Part shown: one piece after another, positions 14,284-45,783 of the stretch
Layout of the letters: each line of letters opens with the position of its first letter
Position numbering within the stretch: the first letter of the stretch is position 1
Assembly (NCBI GenBank): GCA_019828545.1
Contig: JACVRA010000122.1
Coordinates: 1-61,627, forward strand
Reading direction: 5' to 3'
Length of the DNA stretch: 61,627 bases
Source: Paracamarosporium sp. OC-R06-R3
Taxonomy: Eukaryota > Ascomycota > Dothideomycetes > Pleosporales > Didymosphaeriaceae
Translations under genes and position numbers: made by a program
The notes under the pieces: model-generated
Told to the model about the DNA's origin: nothing
The model's input: only the letters and a program-made list of their open reading frames with translations
Databases searched by the model: none

Positions 14284-16870
14284 ATGGCTACTATAGATAC
14301 CGATATGTCTGACCTATACGCCAGTTTGCCCCTTCCAAGAGAGTCGACGTTTATCCGTGTGCTGGATGTCTACGGCCCTTCTAGCCTACAAGACGGTAGT
14401 AGCTCAATATGGTGTGATCTTAGAGTTATCGACCTTGCTTCGGAAAGCCCTCCCTCGTTCACAGCGTTATCCTATGTATGGGGATTTGAGGCTGTTGAAG
14501 GCCACTTCATAACTTGTAGAGGTCGATCTCTTAGAGTCACGCCCAATTGCCATTCCGCATTACGACACCTGAGAGAGAAACTTGGAAACTTCACCATCTG
14601 GATCGATGCCATCTGCATCAATCAAAAAGACGAAGACGAAAAAATGAACCAGATAATGTTGATGCGAGACGTATACTCCAAAGCCGAAACCGTGTACGTT
14701 TGGCTTGGAGAGGGCAATGATGCGACGAACAGGGCTATGGCTTATTTGAAGACTGCCGGTTATCTGAGGTACTTCTTTCACAATGGGAAAACAGTCGAAG
14801 ACGAACTGCAGGAGCCACGTCGCCGGACCGCCATGTGGGCTGCGTTTACAGCATCCTTTCATTTACCGACGGGTCTCTCTTCATCGTTGAATCATGGTAA
14901 GATCTTACGTTCAAGGTTACACAAAATCATAGTAACTAGCTATATTGAAGAGACTAAATTTGTCAGGCCTCGACCAAGCATTGCCAAATATTTTCCCTAA
15001 GATTGTAAACGCTTCTTACCAGGACATCAACGACCTCTTAGATAGGGACTGGATTAGGCGGATATGGACCTACCAAGAGATACTTCTTGCTTCCAATCCG
15101 GTTATAGTTTGTGGTGGTTCCCACCTTCCTTGGGCTCGATTCTCATTGGGTGTCGCATTTCTCGAGTATTCCGGGATAAGTTACCGAAACGGCAACCCTA
15201 TGATTGCCACTCTGAATACATGGGTACAAATTGCTTCGAACCGGGACCACCTCGTTTGGTCTCATGCTACATGCTTTGCCAATATCGAATCGTGTAGGCA
15301 AAACGACGTGCCCCAAACAACATTACAGAGATACCGGAGATTCATCATCGATGTCAGTGGAAGCATCATACGGCTCCGAAAGCAAAGCAAGGTAGTCATG
15401 TTTGTTGGTCTCGGCTGCGTTGTCTGCGTTACATGCATCTGGGTTTTAATAAGGACAGTTAAGGGGACATCCACAATTATAACCACGGTACCAAGCGAGG
15501 TGGCTAGCGCAGCCACTAACACATCAGTTAGTGCAACGGCGTGCGCTGAAGCCTGCTCAGCATCTGACATTAAAGCATGCGCAAGGGCTTGTGACGCAGC
15601 GATGCAAGCAGCTAAGAGTGTAGCCTCGCTCTCAGCCCAGATCGACGACCAGGTATTGTACCAAAGCATCGATCGTATATTTGGTCCTATTTTCGGACTT
15701 TTCTTCATCATCTTTTGCGTCCCATTTGTTCTCTTTCTCAGCTTAGCACGGCGGAAACATCCCATGCTAGAACATGTTCCAGTAGTTCAGAATGCAGGAA
15801 TCGATCTGGTGGATGGGATTTGCAATCGAAAGTCAAAAGAGAAGAAGGACAAAGCTATTGGAGTTCAAGCAGTCCTACAAAGATTATCGAAAACAGCCCT
15901 CTCACCAATTGATAATGCTCACTCATTGGAGCATCTCTACAAACAGCTGTGCATTAATCTGATGGAAGCTACTGGTTCTCTTCAGTTTTTGCTACCGGCA
16001 TCAATGAACAGCTTCCCCGAACATCCATCATGGGTACCAAATTGGGCTGCAGATTTCGACTCCTTCTGGCTGAAATCTACTCTATTTAGAAGCGCGCCCG
16101 TAACTGCAACGCCTGGCTCGAGCGGTCACTGGAAACTGGACCCTAAGAAAGACAATGATCTCACTGTACGGGGCCGCCAAATATGTACCGTTGCCAAATG
16201 TTTTGAGTTCCAAGAAACATTCGACACCTTTGACTCTAGCCAAAGAGATCTTCATCGGGAAAATCTTCGAAACATACTACAATGCGAGCCTATATTTAGA
16301 GAACATGACAAAACTGTATCTTCGATTGTAAATCAGACGAATGCGTTTGGTTTGCTGCAACGTAGTAGCGACCGTCAAATCCACGCGTGGAAAGAATTCA
16401 TGTATCGGATGCGGTACAAGGATCCGGAAAATCTTCTATCAGCTCTTGAGGGTCGAGATAGAACGCTTACATTCAGTCTCGGACTTGATGAACGGGAAGG
16501 GGGAGATTCTTCCCGTGAAGCGATGTTACTCACTCAGATTTCAATATGCAACTGTCTGGCCAAAAAAAGGGTAAAGCTCTTTGCAACCAATCCTCTTCAT
16601 AAATATCGTGCTCTTCTCAATCCAGAGATTTTTGGAGATGAAAGAGAAGAATCCGATTGGATATCTAGGCGATTAGGCGTTGGTTCTCATAGTGTGCGAG
16701 CTGGCGACTTTGTCGTGCTTATTGCCAGTGTTTCATCGCCGTTGATAATTCGTCGTGACGGTATTTCGACACGACTTATAAGCCCAGCAGCTGTCCAAGG
16801 GGTTTCGGATGGAGAAATTTGGGATACTAAGTGGAGAGCGGAAGATCTTGAGGAGTTTATATTGTCATAG
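14284..16870 (+). CDS. HET-domain protein with internal transmembrane hairpin
   Basis: Two exons, 14284-14896 and 14967-16870 (70-base intron), giving 838 residues. The heterokaryon-incompatibility (HET) domain occupies roughly residues 57-255: 'FTALSYVWG' at 59-67, 'IWIDAICINQKDEDEKMNQI' from 105, and 'DWIRRIWTYQEILLASNPV' around 231-250. HET proteins trigger fungal non-self recognition and cell death. The unusual part follows: a hydrophobic helix near 347-369 ('MFVGLGCVVCVTCIWVLI'), a loop of about 75 residues containing a Cys/Ala-rich patch ('ACAEACSASDIKACARACDA'), and a second helix near 444-465 ('FGLFFIIFCVPFVLFLSLA'). The remaining C-terminal half is soluble and is of the type found in many HET genes. 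The hairpin suggests a membrane-bound form. It sits beside an AT-rich gene-poor zone, typical for this fast-evolving family. Confidence 0.9.
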
Positions 16871-37245: not shown

Positions 37246-39337
37246 TTACAATTTGCTCTTCGCACTTGCCATTCCCTCCTCGCTACTCCTCCAGTCCCAG
37301 CTCGGCAACTTCATGGTTCCCTTCTCGTTCAGATGCTTGTGCATGTCAAAGCTGTTCCAGAGCAAATGCGGCTCGTGGCCCCATCCCTTCCTCAAGCACT
37401 CAAACTCTGCCTTGTTGAAGTAATCTTCAAGGATAGGCTGGTAATCGGGGTGTGCACACTTCTTGATGATGACACGGGCGCGCTCGCGGGGTGAGAGACC
37501 ACGCACGTCAGCAAGACCCTGCTCCGTGACAATGACGTCGAGATCGTGCTCAGTTTGGTCGATGTGCGTGCACATGGGCACAATGCAGGAGACACCCGTG
37601 GGGTCGGTCTTTGAGGGACGCGTAGAGGGCGTGTGCATGATGGAGTATTTGGAGGAACGGAGGAAGTCTGCGGATCCACCGAGACCGTTGAGCATGCGGG
37701 ATCCCATTACGCAAGTGCTGTTTGCGTGGGCATAGATGTCGACCTCAACGGGCGTGTTCATTCCGATAACACCGAGACGGCGGATGATTTCAGGCGAGTT
37801 GGAGACCTGCTGTGAGCGGAGAAGCAGCTTGGGTGCGTAGCGGTCCCAGTTATCATAGAAGCGCTGGAAGCCTTCAGGAGAGAAACGGATCGATGTAGCA
37901 GTGGCGAAGTCTAAGTTTCCGGAGTCGAAGAGGTCTAAAAATGAGTCTTGAAGCACTTCTGTCCATACTTTAAGGTTCTTGAAATTGGCGCCACCAGACT
38001 AAAAATTGTTAGCACAAATTCTGAGTCAAATTTCTTACAATATCGGATACTTACAGCCAAACCTCCAATGACAGCGTTCGCAATGTTACCGATACCAGAT
38101 TGTAGAGGCAACAGATTCTCCGGCAACCTTCCATGGTTGACCTCATGCTTCAAAAACTCGATCAAGTTTGCTGCAATTGCCCTGCTCGTATCGTCTTCAG
38201 GAGCATTTGGCTGCGTCTGATCCGGGTAGTCACTCTCAACGATTGCAACCACGCGTTCCGGGTCTATCGGAATATGAGGGGTACCGATGCGGTCTTCAGG
38301 AGCCATGATAAGATATGGCTTTCGGCGGGGAGGCAAATCGGTCATGGTGATATCGTGTAGACCCTCAAAAGATGGAGCAGCGGTATTGACTTCGATGATG
38401 ATTTTGTCGGCCATCTGGATGAGTTCGGGTGATGCACCAACGGATGCGCCAGGAATAATGCCGCCATCTTCGGTGATCGCAGAAGCTTCCACAATTGTAA
38501 CATCAAGGCGATTCTGAGGCTTGTTGAGCGTGTAGTATCTGTTTCCTTTTAGCATTTTGACTTCTTTGAACTCAGTCCACTATGCCTCCATAATTTTCTA
38601 AGAAAAGGGATTCGAAGTTTGTACGTACCCATACATCAAATCCACCGGGAACATACTCAAATGCTTGTCGAAGAATTTAATGTTGCCATTGTTGATGCCT
38701 TTTGCTATCTCCTTTCCGACCTGATGAGGCGACCGTCGCTCGATCATGTTCAATCGCGCCCAACGGTTTTCGGTCTCGGCACCAGAAGACGCACCGACAA
38801 ACAGGTTGTATTTCATCTGACCCTGCAAGTTGTTCTTTTCGACATGGTCGGCCAAGGCGGTAGGGATTTTCCTGGAGTTACGCTGTTAGTACCACGCGGA
38901 CCAGGGTGTGAGAGCTGGAAAAGCAAGGTAGCCAGATAAACCACTCGTTCCATGCTTTCGCCTCTTGCTGCTTCAGCACAAACATTTTGCTTGAAAAGTC
39001 ACTGCCCATACTGCGAAAGCGCCAGGTCCTGTGCTCCTCCCCGGCCCACAAAAAACTCCATCCGTGCTCCCAACTTGTGCTCGGAGATTCCTCGGCCCCC
39101 AAACTTCCGTTCCGCCTCGGGACAAGCAAAACACACATCCTCAATTATGCACAAAACAATTGAGCAAGTAGAAAATCGGACAAGGGTTACTCACTTCGGA
39201 TATCCCACACCCGTGAATCCACTCCAACCGATATATGCACCATTTGGAAAATGATGAAGAAGGTCCTCAGCCTTAGCTAGCTTGTTGAGATAGCTAGGTC
39301 TCCTGACCCTACTCTTCAATAGTGCAGATACAGACAT
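37246..39337 (-). CDS. ACH1: Acetyl-CoA hydrolase / CoA-transferase (Ach1, CoaT)
   Basis: Four exons, 39337-39195, 38871-38629, 38538-38055 and 37998-37246, giving 540 residues. The N-terminus '[20 protein letters not shown]' is basic and looks like a mitochondrial presequence. Family blocks include '[13 protein letters not shown]', '[17 protein letters not shown]', '[19 protein letters not shown]', '[20 protein letters not shown]' and '[20 protein letters not shown]'. The enzyme moves CoA between acetate, succinate and propionate and in fungi detoxifies propionyl-CoA and helps acetate use in mitochondria. The protein ends in 'AKSKL', a canonical peroxisomal PTS1 tripeptide. The first intron is 323 bases, long for this window, with a good CTAAC branch site next to its acceptor. 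Identification is very secure; the location is less so. Confidence 0.95.
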
Positions 39338-40071: not shown

Positions 40072-41199
40072 TCAAGCATTCTCGCGTCTCTCTTTTTTCC
40101 ATTTCTTCTTAAAATCCTTCTTGACTCCTGTCATCTTCCACCCCTCCAATACCGCCATCACGATCCACCAAAACAGCAACAACAACCCAAATGCCAGAGC
40201 CCACCCAATTACTTCGGTACCAAACCATTGAAAAAGGCCAATCGTTTTCTTTAGACCCTTGCTATCCGTTTCCCACATCTGTCTGCCGGTGAGAATGACC
40301 TGCATTGCGTTCAAGATGACGCTGAAGCTGGCGAAGAGGAAGAGCGTTGCTGGGAAAAAGCGTTGAAAATAGACGCCATGATTGTATTCGAAGCGGTTGA
40401 AGTGGTAGCGATGCAGAATGATCCCTGAATAGAAGTTTAGTGCTTCGAGTAGGAGCTCGCCGTATAGTCAACGAGGAGAAACGCTGGTGGACGGGATGTG
40501 TGCGAAAGCGGTTGTGAAGGCGACAAAGGATTCAAAGGTCATGTCTGAGAACGGAGGGAGGAGGTTATGCCGGAGGGCGATGGTGTAGTCGGAGCGATGC
40601 GTTATCAACAAGGCGTAAGTGTGTAGGAAACCTAGTGATGTTGCGATGAGGCGGTCTCTTTCTTCAAGAGCTACACCGCAAATCGTTGGATCGAGAAGGT
40701 GCTCCCAGAAAGCGTACGAGCATAGGTATGCGGGGAGCGGTTTGATGTAAACGATACGGTTTTCCGATAGAACAAGATGCAATGAGGGATCCTCGGTGCT
40801 GACAATGCGTCGCTCGAATGTCAATTGATGGCTGAGAGATTTGATGTTGGGATTTGCACCGCACCCCCAAAGCTTTTGGTTGAGCTTATTTAATCCTGGT
40901 GTGTCTAGATCCTGAAGACCGTATGTGACCACACTGTGGGAGTCAAGAGGAATGCTAGGTGCATCGGGTAGACGCTGCTCGTTTGTGAGGCTGCGAAGAC
41001 CCGACGACAGGTCTGTCCCTTGAATATACGCAAGATCTTCGCAGAGCTGGCGTGAGTAGTCGAACGGAGGACGATCATGTGATGCTTTTGCGCTTGAGGG
41101 AATGCTAGATGCTGAAAAAGAGGCGACATACGTCGGCGTAGGTGACACCGGTGTGATAAGCTCTTCTTCCATTCCCTTCTCTGTGTTTACGGTGCGCAT
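40072..41199 (-). CDS. Fungal DUF6601-like membrane protein interrupted by one in-frame TGA
   Basis: One reading frame of 376 codons with a single TGA at 40470-40468. The first part is 243 residues, starts at ATG 41199 and has blocks such as 'NRIVYIKPLPAYLCSYAFWE' and 'ATSLGFLHTYALLITHRSDY'. The second part, in the same frame, is 131 residues: 'LYGELLLEALNFYS', then two hydrophobic helices ('ATLFLFASFSVILNAMQVIL' and 'VIGWALAFGLLLLFWWIVMA') and a basic tail. From memory this layout, including a 'PR-x-x-YGEL-x-L' junction, matches a widespread fungal family of unknown function (I believe DUF6601). The stop replaces what is an aromatic residue in relatives, with no indel. I see no intron that would remove it. 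It is either a nonsense-mutated pseudogene or a gene decoded by stop-codon readthrough, since the stop is followed by CTA. Confidence 0.75.
40465..40470 (-). other. TGA CTA stop context, candidate readthrough site
   Basis: The in-frame stop of the interrupted gene is followed immediately by CTA (read TGA CTA on the minus strand). TGA CTA is the strongest known natural readthrough context in fungi and animals, where it gives extended isoforms of several metabolic enzymes. Confidence 0.6.
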
Positions 41200-41862: not shown

Positions 41863-43059
41863 ATGGTTTATTCTTCTGTATGGTACTGGCAGTGGCATAC
41901 TAATCTATTTGGTAGGATTACTCGACTATGGAGAGGGGCACGTTTCTCTTTCGGTGTCTGGTTCAGGTACGTTCAAGACGATCCTGAGCCCGTTTCGTCA
42001 ACGTTTCCAGTACGTATCCGCTCAATGTGTGTATGAAAATCAGTATTCTAATTTTTGTTCGCATAGGGTGAACATATCAGATACTCCCATTTAGTGGGGG
42101 ATGAAATCCGCCTCCTCATGGTCCTTCCTGGCCGTTCGACAGACAAGATCAGAATAAGGCTGATCACAACCAGCCTATCCCAAGGGGCCCCATATGAGGC
42201 GCTTTCATACGTATGGGGTCCTTGGGACAAACGTCATATGCTTGATGTTGATGGTCGGGCCATAAATATACACAAAGGGGTGTCCGATGCTGTTCATGCC
42301 CTTAGGTTACCAGACTTCGAAAGGCTGATATGGGTAGACGCCATATGCATCAACCAACAAGATCTGGAAAAGAGAAACCAACACGTCGCACAAATGGATC
42401 AAATATACGCGAGCGCAGAAAGTGTTGTTGTTTTCTTAGGTCAGCCGACTCCGTTCAGCCGGCAAGGCATGGACGCTCTCCGGCAATTTATAGATGTACA
42501 CGCAACGTTGGCGCAGCCACCCTGGCTATATACACCTCCACCTCAAACAGAAAAGTGCATCGCAGACTTATTGAAACGACCGTGGTTTAAACGTATATGG
42601 ACGGTTCAAGAAGCTGTGTTAGCTCGGCATACAACCGTTGTCTGTGGCAAAGATCAAGTACCGTGGCATGGAAATTTCAAAACCTTAAAAGCCATCGTCT
42701 TTCGCATCAAAGCTGCCGCTATAGTTCCTCACTTTAGACCCAATGGAAGAACCAGCCGGCTCAAATGGGAACGTTTGCTTGGAATACTTGAAGAGCAGAT
42801 GAGACAAGCCGCGAGGAGGGAAGGAGTAATCATTGAACGAAGCCTGCTCGACATTGCCTTCGATTTTCGACACAGATGCTCAACAGACCCCAGGGATAAA
42901 TATTTCGCGATGTTCAGCATTTCAGGCAATGACCGTGGTGGACGATTGATCCTATCTCCAGATTATACCATCGGTGTCAAGGAATTGCACCATAGGCTTG
43001 TAATGGAGTTGCAGCGGCTCAGCGAGGCCAGCGATGTTCACACGGAGTATGCAGGATGA
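41863..43059 (+). CDS. HET-domain protein, short form
   Basis: Two exons, 41863-42009 and 42067-43059 (57-base intron), giving 379 residues. The first exon encodes a Trp/aromatic-rich leader ('MVYSSVWYWQWHTNLFG') and joins in phase to 'GDEIRLLMVLPG', the usual lead-in of a HET domain. HET motifs follow: 'YEALSYVWG' at about 92-100, 'LIWVDAICINQQDLEKRNQH' around 136-155 and 'RPWFKRIWTVQEAVLARHTT' around 220-239. The later block 'RCSTDPRDKYFAMFSIS' is the conserved sequence after the domain. The protein then stops soon after 'DVHTEYAG'; many relatives run to 600 residues or more, so this is a compact or C-terminally shortened member. The role is probably in non-self recognition or regulated cell death. 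The first exon is the least certain part. Confidence 0.85.
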
Positions 43060-43613: not shown

Positions 43614-45783
43614 TCACTTATCAAAAGCATCTCTCAGTTTCTCAAAATGATCCCTGACATCCTCGCCCAAACGACCCTCCACATCCGTCAATATCGTACA
43701 CACAAGACTATAGTTATTACACAAAAACCTCTCCCTCTTCCTCGCATCCCCAATGCCCTTGCCCATCCTCGCCAAATACGCCTCATACTCGCTCCTCAAC
43801 CTACCCACCGACACAGACACAGGCTCATCATCACCGGCCTCGCTCGAAAGCGCGAGAATACCTTGCAGCAGATTCGCAAACTTCTGCGTCAGAGGCGTAG
43901 GCGCAGTCGAATTTGCGGATTGGGAGCCGAGGAGAGCTGCGCCGGTCGAGGGACGGTTCGGCAGCGAGTTCGTCAGTTTCTGGAGCGTTGTGCAGTGCAA
44001 GTCGAGGATTTGCTGGAAGCGTGGCCAGAGGAGCATGTTGGTTGCGTTGATGTAGCCCTCTACGGCTGGTACTTTGCGCCGCTGCAGCTCGAAGGCGAAA
44101 TGCTGGTTGAGTCTTACGCAAAGCAACATACCGAGGGTGTCCGTCGATGTTTCCACAAGCTGCTTTGTGATCGCTTGGCCAAGGGCAAAAGTGGGTTCGA
44201 AGATTGCGGCGAACGTGCGGCCTATGGCGTGGTATGTTTGGCTGGGCGAGAAGTACGATGTCAAGAAGGTGTACTCGAAACAAGCATTGTCGATAAGGGC
44301 AAGATTGAAGCTCCGGAATGGGGTCTCAAGGTAGTGTGCAGCCTTTTCTTCTTCGGCGAGGTGTGCAGGGAGGGCGTTCACAGAGGTGGTCTTGAGCGTG
44401 TCGACGCGCCGACCAAGCGAGAATGCATCGTAGGATGCTGGAGGGCCGCCCCTGGCTGGACCTAGTAGCGCACCGCTTCTCTTCGATGCAGGGTCTTCAC
44501 CTAGCACATCGTACTTGTCCAATGCGTGTATTCTCAGCTTGTCCAAGCTCGATTTGTATCTTGTGAAATGGTTCAGGTAGTACCACCGCATAGTGTAAAT
44601 ATACGCTTGACATATCTGCGAGGCGAGTTCTGGCTGATGTCTTGCCAGGAAGGCATATGAGTCCTTGTACTTCAAGAACGCTTGCTGTTGGATGATTTGG
44701 GCATTGATGGAAGGTGAGCGGATGGCCTTAATCTGGGCAACAATGTAGTCGCGTATCCGTTCAATAGCGCGATTGGTAAGATCGGTGAGCAGTGGCTTTA
44801 TGTCTGACAGAGCTTTAAGTTCTGATTGGGAAGTTGACTTGGAGGTAACCGTTTTCGACCGCTTTTCAAGATCCGACAGCGCGTGTAGAAATCCTTCGTC
44901 CACCGGCCCCTCGGCAATCTTCCGCACCACGGCTGGCGAAATGCTGATATCCTCCACAGCGGGACCAAGTATCTTCTCTACCACTTTACGATTCTCAAGT
45001 TTGGTGTTCAATGCGATTGAGCGGTTCTGCAAAGACTCTATCTCTGCTGATACGGCGCCGAGATCGGCCTGGAAGTTGGTGAGGTAGGTTTCCACCGATT
45101 TCAGCACCTCGTCACACGCTATGATGGACCTGTGCAGGTCCTCGAACTTGTCCTTCTCCTTGTCAACTGCACCCACAATAAGCAAGGCCACTTGGAGAAG
45201 GAGCAAGACACATACATTCTTCAACTGACTGTGCACTATATGTATGTACAGGAGATGCCACTGGTTCGGGCGCGCCCTCCGCCGCGAAGTCCTGCAAACT
45301 AAGCCCCCCAAAGTCTATGCTCGTCTCCATCTCTTCCGGTTTGTCTGGTATTACCCCAATGCCGTTTGCTCTTGAGGGGACGGGTTTGCGCGGCCGCCCT
45401 CCCATTATCGATTCCAACACCTGTATTGGATCTGGCACATTAGGAGGTACACCGCCCGGTGGTCGCCTACGCCCGGAGCCATTGGGTATGTTAGCGGTGG
45501 AGGGCAGGCTTGTGGTTGAGGAAAGCGGAGATATAAGCGACAGCGAGGACGAGCGCGGGTTCAGGCCGGGGCGCAGAGGCAGCGGCGCAGGTCTGTCCGT
45601 GGGATGCAGCCGGCGAGGAGCTGGGGAGTACGAGTCGCGGCGCGGCGGAGGGGTGCCTGAGGGCGTCGAGTGCGCGGACAGCCTGTCCAGACCCCACATG
45701 CTGCGTGCTGGCGTTGGTTCACGACGCTTCAAGGGAGCATAGTAGGGGTCCTTCGTCGGGGTCGCGCTGCGGGTGGTGTCCAT
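43614..45783 (-). CDS. VPS52: GARP complex subunit Vps52
   Basis: Two exons, 45783-45216 and 45166-43614 (49-base intron), giving 706 residues. The first 170 residues are Pro/Ser/Arg-rich and disordered. The rest is the Vps52/Sac2 domain: a coiled-coil start ('FDKEKDKFEDLHRSI'), 'ISPAVVRKIAEGPVDEGFL', 'INAQIIQQQAFLKYKD', 'YIYTMRWYYLNHFTRYKSSL' and 'LLWPRFQQILDLHCTTLQKL'. Vps52 with Vps51, Vps53 and Vps54 forms the GARP tether that captures endosome-derived vesicles at the trans-Golgi network. Length and blocks fit, with no missing part. A 307-codon antisense frame inside the gene is a shadow. It is the first gene of a run of core genes to its right and faces away from eIF5A across a 229-base spacer. 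Confidence 0.95.

What the first reader, a model, noticed from the sequence alone, without database searches (positions are those of the whole stretch)
40072..41199. Single in-frame TGA CTA splits a membrane-protein gene: readthrough candidate or fresh nonsense mutation
Sequence: 243 codons, one TGA, then 131 codons in the same frame with family-like sequence and two hydrophobic helices. The nucleotides after the stop are CTA. Knowledge: TGA CTA is the strongest natural stop-readthrough context described in fungi and animals. Inference: low-level readthrough would give two products from one mRNA, a soluble 243-residue form and a membrane-anchored 374-residue form. This differs from known cases, which add a peroxisomal signal. 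The alternative is a pseudogene, for instance W or R codon changed to TGA by a C-to-T (or G-to-A) transition such as RIP.
Basis: partly seen in the sequence, partly recalled or inferred. Interest (0 to 1): 0.8.

Follow-up and report, generated by a model that had tools for sequence, protein, structure and literature searches.

The report
Fungal gene split by private stop
A gene of unknown function in an unnamed fungus carries one stop codon where the relatives compared have an aromatic amino acid, which looks like an ordinary recent gene-breaking mutation that happens to lie in a leaky sequence context rather than a built-in switch between two proteins.

Summary
In detail: 243 codons, TGA CTA, then 131 in-frame codons on the minus strand, with two hydrophobic segments after the stop. 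The gene encodes a DUF6601 (PF20246) protein of a Didymosphaeriaceae-like fungus, and the stop cuts that domain in two. At the stop column 35 of 36 relatives and paralogues have a residue, Trp in 25 and Tyr in 10, so the TGA is private to this genome in the data searched. The tail is intact and not significantly accelerated: the stop is young, or readthrough keeps the tail constrained. Breakage is common in this family: 3 of 9 copies in this genome hold in-frame stops, and the Karstenula orthologue is frame-shifted before its first membrane helix. There is no RIP signature and no consensus-like intron over the stop. Best reading: a recent nonsense allele of a dispensable gene (a sequencing error is not excluded), with perhaps incidental low-level readthrough. 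A maintained two-product design is unlikely but not excluded. While checking, I found that this genome's GAPDH gene has an in-frame extension ending in SKL after its TAG stop, a known type of cryptic peroxisomal signal.

The parts
40468..41199 (-). First open part: 243 codons plus the in-frame TGA; DUF6601 profile positions 6-152
40468..40470 (-). In-frame TGA at codon 244; the column holds Trp (25) or Tyr (10) in 35 of 36 other rows, one gap
40465..40467 (-). CTA right after the TGA (UGA CUA readthrough-type context); Leu is found at this column in no other row
40075..40467 (-). 131 codons after the stop in the same frame; DUF6601 profile positions 155-235
40285..40359 (-). First hydrophobic helix, about residues 281-305
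   Evidence: hydropathy; helix 274-308 in the model
40138..40227 (-). Second hydrophobic helix, about residues 325-354
   Evidence: hydropathy; helix 314-374 in the model
40072..40074 (-). Terminal TGA of the frame

Best explanation
A recent nonsense mutation, private to this genome in the data searched, has replaced a conserved aromatic codon in a dispensable DUF6601 membrane-protein gene and made an early-stage pseudogene. Shown: the stop lies inside the conserved domain, the relatives compared have a sense codon there, and the tail is still intact. Inferred: most translation ends at codon 243 and gives a domain cut short; the mRNA may be subject to nonsense-mediated decay (general knowledge, untested); the UGA CUA context may let a small share of ribosomes through, in yeast by Trp or Cys tRNA, which could give a nearly normal protein. 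Such a leak would be a by-product and not a maintained switch.
For: 35 of 36 relatives and paralogues have a residue at the column, 25 Trp and 10 Tyr; the other is a truncated model. None of 16 proteins from a search that admitted N-terminal halves ends at this site. 3 of 9 DUF6601 matches in this genome hold in-frame stops. The Karstenula orthologue is frame-shifted before its first membrane helix: 18 of 18 residues fit a shifted reading, against at most 14 in 2000 shuffles. The Paraphaeosphaeria sporulosa model has only 152 residues. The stop splits the Pfam domain. RIP indices are ordinary.
Against: The tail has no second stop or frameshift and shows no significant acceleration. The context is exactly UGA CUA, sufficient for efficient readthrough in Ustilago maydis (PMC4207609, passages). 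This genome's GAPDH carries a readthrough-type SKL extension, so the lineage may use readthrough elsewhere. No reads and no sibling alleles were available.
Confidence: 0.72

Rival explanations
1. Maintained translational readthrough (a pseudo-pseudogene): UGA CUA lets a fraction of ribosomes insert an amino acid and make the full membrane protein, so selection still acts on the tail.
For: Exact UGA CUA, sufficient for readthrough in U. maydis, motif also active in HeLa cells (PMC4207609, passages). In yeast UGA is read by Trp or Cys tRNA (PMC4446449, passages), and Trp is the commonest residue of the family here. Tail intact, no significant acceleration. GAPDH of this genome has a TAG stop with an SKL-ended extension.
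Against: No relative has a stop at the site. CTA after a stop has a prior of about 1-3% and was noticed after the fact. The base after CTA is T, whereas many genes of PMC4207609 have G there (passages). Other family copies in this genome hold stops in other contexts. The window has more private changes after the stop (5 of 69) than before it (1 of 76), not significant. PGK of this genome has only a 5-residue extension without PTS1.
Confidence: 0.12
2. Sequencing or assembly error: the real codon is sense and the gene is intact.
For: The stop is private and the rest of the frame is intact. Reads were not available.
Against: Other copies of the family in the same assembly also hold stops, and an orthologue in another genome is broken, so breakage here needs no error.
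Confidence: 0.1
3. An intron removes the stop from the mRNA.
For: One GT-AG interval of 48 nt over the stop keeps the frame.
Against: Of 7 in-frame GT-AG intervals of 40-200 nt over the TGA, none has a GTA or GTG donor and none has a CTRAY branch motif before its acceptor. The 48-nt interval would delete the conserved YGEL motif, which the other rows that reach this region keep in similar form.
Confidence: 0.03
4. The 243-residue truncated protein is itself the selected product, a soluble form without membrane anchors.
For: AlphaFold2 gives a mostly confident model for residues 1-243 (mean pLDDT 83.6). The Karstenula frameshift also removes the membrane helices.
Against: Truncation removes a predicted strand (247-250) and helix (251-262) and lowers block confidence of residues 101-120 from 87 and 82 to 66 and 57. 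AlphaFold2 does not measure stability. No protein found ends at this site.
Confidence: 0.03

Closest known systems
DUF6601 (PF20246), fungal proteins of unknown function
   Same: Both pieces match the profile in one frame
   Different: An in-frame stop inside the domain; relatives with a residue there have Trp or Tyr
UGA CUA readthrough genes of fungi and animals (Stiebler et al. 2014, PMC4207609; passages seen)
   Same: Exact UGA CUA
   Different: There the stop follows a complete enzyme and the extension adds a peroxisomal signal; here the stop is inside a domain and the rest of the domain plus membrane helices follow. Stop not shared with relatives. No G after CUA.
Olfactory receptor pseudo-pseudogene Ir75a of Drosophila sechellia (described in a passage of PMC7244557; original paper not read)
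   Same: Premature stop inside an otherwise intact gene, with a full-length product possible by readthrough
   Different: There translation of a functional full-length protein was reported; here there is sequence only

Membership tests
DUF6601 (PF20246) | Profile match above the Pfam cut-off of 27 bits | tested here: met
   135.7 bits before and 50 bits after the stop
DUF6601 (PF20246) | One uninterrupted domain | tested here: not met
   TGA between profile positions 152 and 155; the gene is a broken or leaky member
UGA CUA functional readthrough gene | UGA followed by CU(A) | tested here: met
   TGA CTA; base after it is T
UGA CUA functional readthrough gene | Stop and extension conserved among relatives | tested here: not met
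   0 of 35 rows with a residue at the column have a stop
UGA CUA functional readthrough gene | Measured readthrough product | not testable with these tools
   needs a reporter, ribosome profiling or proteomics
Unitary pseudogene | Disabling change absent from relatives | tested here: met
Unitary pseudogene | Relaxed evolution after the disabling change | tested here: inconclusive
   tail/front branch ratio 1.37, fifth of 22; bootstrap median 1.73, range 0.82-2.99; private changes 5/69 versus 16/400, p 0.21

The most novel reading that the evidence does not exclude
A fungal pseudo-pseudogene: a premature UGA inside a membrane-protein domain sits in the UGA CUA context, so leaky insertion of the family's own tryptophan keeps a low dose of full-length protein and keeps the tail under selection.
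Probability: 0.12. Interest if true: 0.6.

Novelty: new member of a known kind. Interest (0 to 1): 0.2.

Why it matters
As a nonsense allele it is one more example of birth and death in a fungal gene family of unknown function. If readthrough rescued it, it would be a premature-stop rescue in a fungus like the one described for a fly receptor gene, and would caution against calling such genes dead. A short reporter test could settle it.

Full report
Observation. On the minus strand, 41199 to 40072 is one frame: 243 codons, TGA (40468-40470), CTA as the first of 131 codons, and a terminal TGA (40072-40074). Two hydrophobic segments lie after the stop; windows before it stay below 1.0.

Identity. 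Both pieces match Pfam DUF6601: residues 95-243 to profile positions 6-152 (E 2.9e-39), and residues 2-82 after the stop to positions 155-235 (E 4.3e-13). So the stop cuts one conserved domain in two. The neighbouring Vps52 protein is 93% identical to Kalmusia sp. and Paraconiothyrium brasiliense, 92% to Karstenula rhodostoma and 91% to Paraphaeosphaeria minitans, which places the genome in or near Didymosphaeriaceae (Pleosporales). The best hit was 93%, so no sibling is in that database listing. In six named genomes (Kalmusia, Karstenula, Ophiobolus, Lindgomyces, Setomelanomma, Polyplosphaeria) the DUF6601 hit and the Vps52 hit lie on contigs of the same length; I take these as the same contig and as support for orthology, but distance and order were not checked.

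Is the stop conserved? No. I aligned the window protein with the 34 proteins found and with 2 intact paralogues of this genome. Of these 36 rows, 35 have a residue at the stop column, 25 Trp and 10 Tyr; the other (P0013) is a truncated model. The next column has Arg in 22 rows, then Cys 4, His 3, Gln 3, Ser 2, Asn 1; Leu is in the window only. The first search (lengths of about 134-425 aa) would have admitted N-terminal halves ending at this site; it returned 16 proteins and none ends there.

Has the tail decayed? Not significantly. On one fixed tree of 22 proteins the window tip is 0.151 before and 0.206 after the stop (ratio 1.37), the fifth highest of 22; three unbroken members of its own clade are higher. 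A bootstrap over columns (40 replicates) gives a normalised ratio with median 1.73 and range 0.82-2.99, so mild acceleration is possible. At columns where the other six of a seven-sequence clade agree, the window has 5 private changes of 69 after the stop and 1 of 76 before it; the six relatives pooled have 16 of 400 and 8 of 458. Fisher p is 0.21 for 5/69 against 16/400, 0.10 for the window's tail against its front, and 0.06 for the pooled relatives' tail against front, so the tail changes faster in relatives too. The simplest reading is a stop much younger than the separation from the nearest relatives in hand; continued constraint would look the same.

Breakage in the family. This genome has 9 DUF6601 matches; 3 contain in-frame stops: the window copy, one with a TGA and a TAG (C7), and one with two TAG (C60). 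The C7 copy is otherwise family-like, and by eye one of its stops stands at the Trp column 165 that is invariant in three of the alignments. Of the four stops in these two copies I read the contexts of three: TAG AAC, TGA TTC and TAG AGA, none of them UGA CU. In Karstenula rhodostoma the annotated orthologue (P0006, 286 aa) ends in a tail that fits a shifted-frame reading of the first membrane helix: 18 of 18 residues, against at most 14 in 2000 shuffles. In a tree of 13 sequences P0006 groups with P0013, P0001 and P0010 (supports 87, 90, 93), apart from the window, so the two breakages look independent, though deeper nodes are weak (35-56). No orthologue from P. brasiliense or P. minitans was listed, although their Vps52 was; absence from predicted protein sets is weak evidence. 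As a second family, 11 of the listed HET matches contain stops; the tool counted 151 matches, scored 150 of 346 candidates and did not list all; some of these stops could lie in introns.

Mechanism. CUA after UGA was sufficient for efficient readthrough in Ustilago maydis, and the motif also works in HeLa cells; many of the genes there have G after it, and here it is T (PMC4207609, passages). In yeast, eIF3 promotes UGA readthrough by Trp or Cys tRNA (PMC4446449, passages). So some leak is plausible and could restore the family residue. The prior for CTA after a random stop is about 1% from window ORFs and 2.7% within this gene, a mild coincidence noticed after the fact.

Does this lineage use readthrough elsewhere? 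PGK ends in TAG with a 5-residue extension without a peroxisomal signal. GAPDH ends in TAG GAA and its frame goes on for 11 codons to end in SKL. PMC3798809 (passages) tells that fungal GAPDH, PGK and TPI reach peroxisomes by readthrough of stops before such signals. That makes functional readthrough in this fungus plausible, at a gene of the known kind and in a different stop context.

The two-product idea. The AlphaFold2 model of the read-through protein (mean pLDDT 83.8) has a strand at 247-250 and a helix at 251-262 just after the stop, before the membrane helices. The 243-residue model keeps a mean of 83.6, but residues 101-120 fall from 87 and 82 to 66 and 57. So the cut is not at a clean domain end, though a partly folded truncated form is not excluded. 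No known fold was recognised.

Other causes. RIP indices are ordinary. No credible intron over the stop was found among those tested. A sequencing error cannot be tested without reads.

Verdict. A real and correctly described in-frame stop, best explained as a recent, private, gene-breaking mutation in a dispensable gene, with possible incidental readthrough. Ordinary unless readthrough is shown.

Noticed in passing
G000:C151, stop at about 89682-89684 (-), in L050 and L051: The GAPDH gene ends in TAG GAA and the frame continues for 11 codons to end in SKL: a candidate cryptic peroxisomal signal of the kind known for fungal GAPDH.
   Followed up: partly
G000:C7:57035-57748 (L013) and G000:C60:295407-295850 (L017): Two further DUF6601 copies of this genome hold in-frame stops (TGA and TAG; two TAG).
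   Followed up: partly
P0006 (Karstenula rhodostoma): The annotated DUF6601 orthologue ends in a shifted-frame tail at the first membrane helix.
   Followed up: yes
window 42193-42612 (+) and 14458-14793 (+): Two HET (heterokaryon incompatibility) domain matches; the genome has 151 or more.
   Followed up: no
window 43617-45311 (-) and 37246-38555 (-): Vps52 and acetyl-CoA hydrolase genes flank the locus; in six named genomes DUF6601 and Vps52 are on contigs of the same length.
   Followed up: partly
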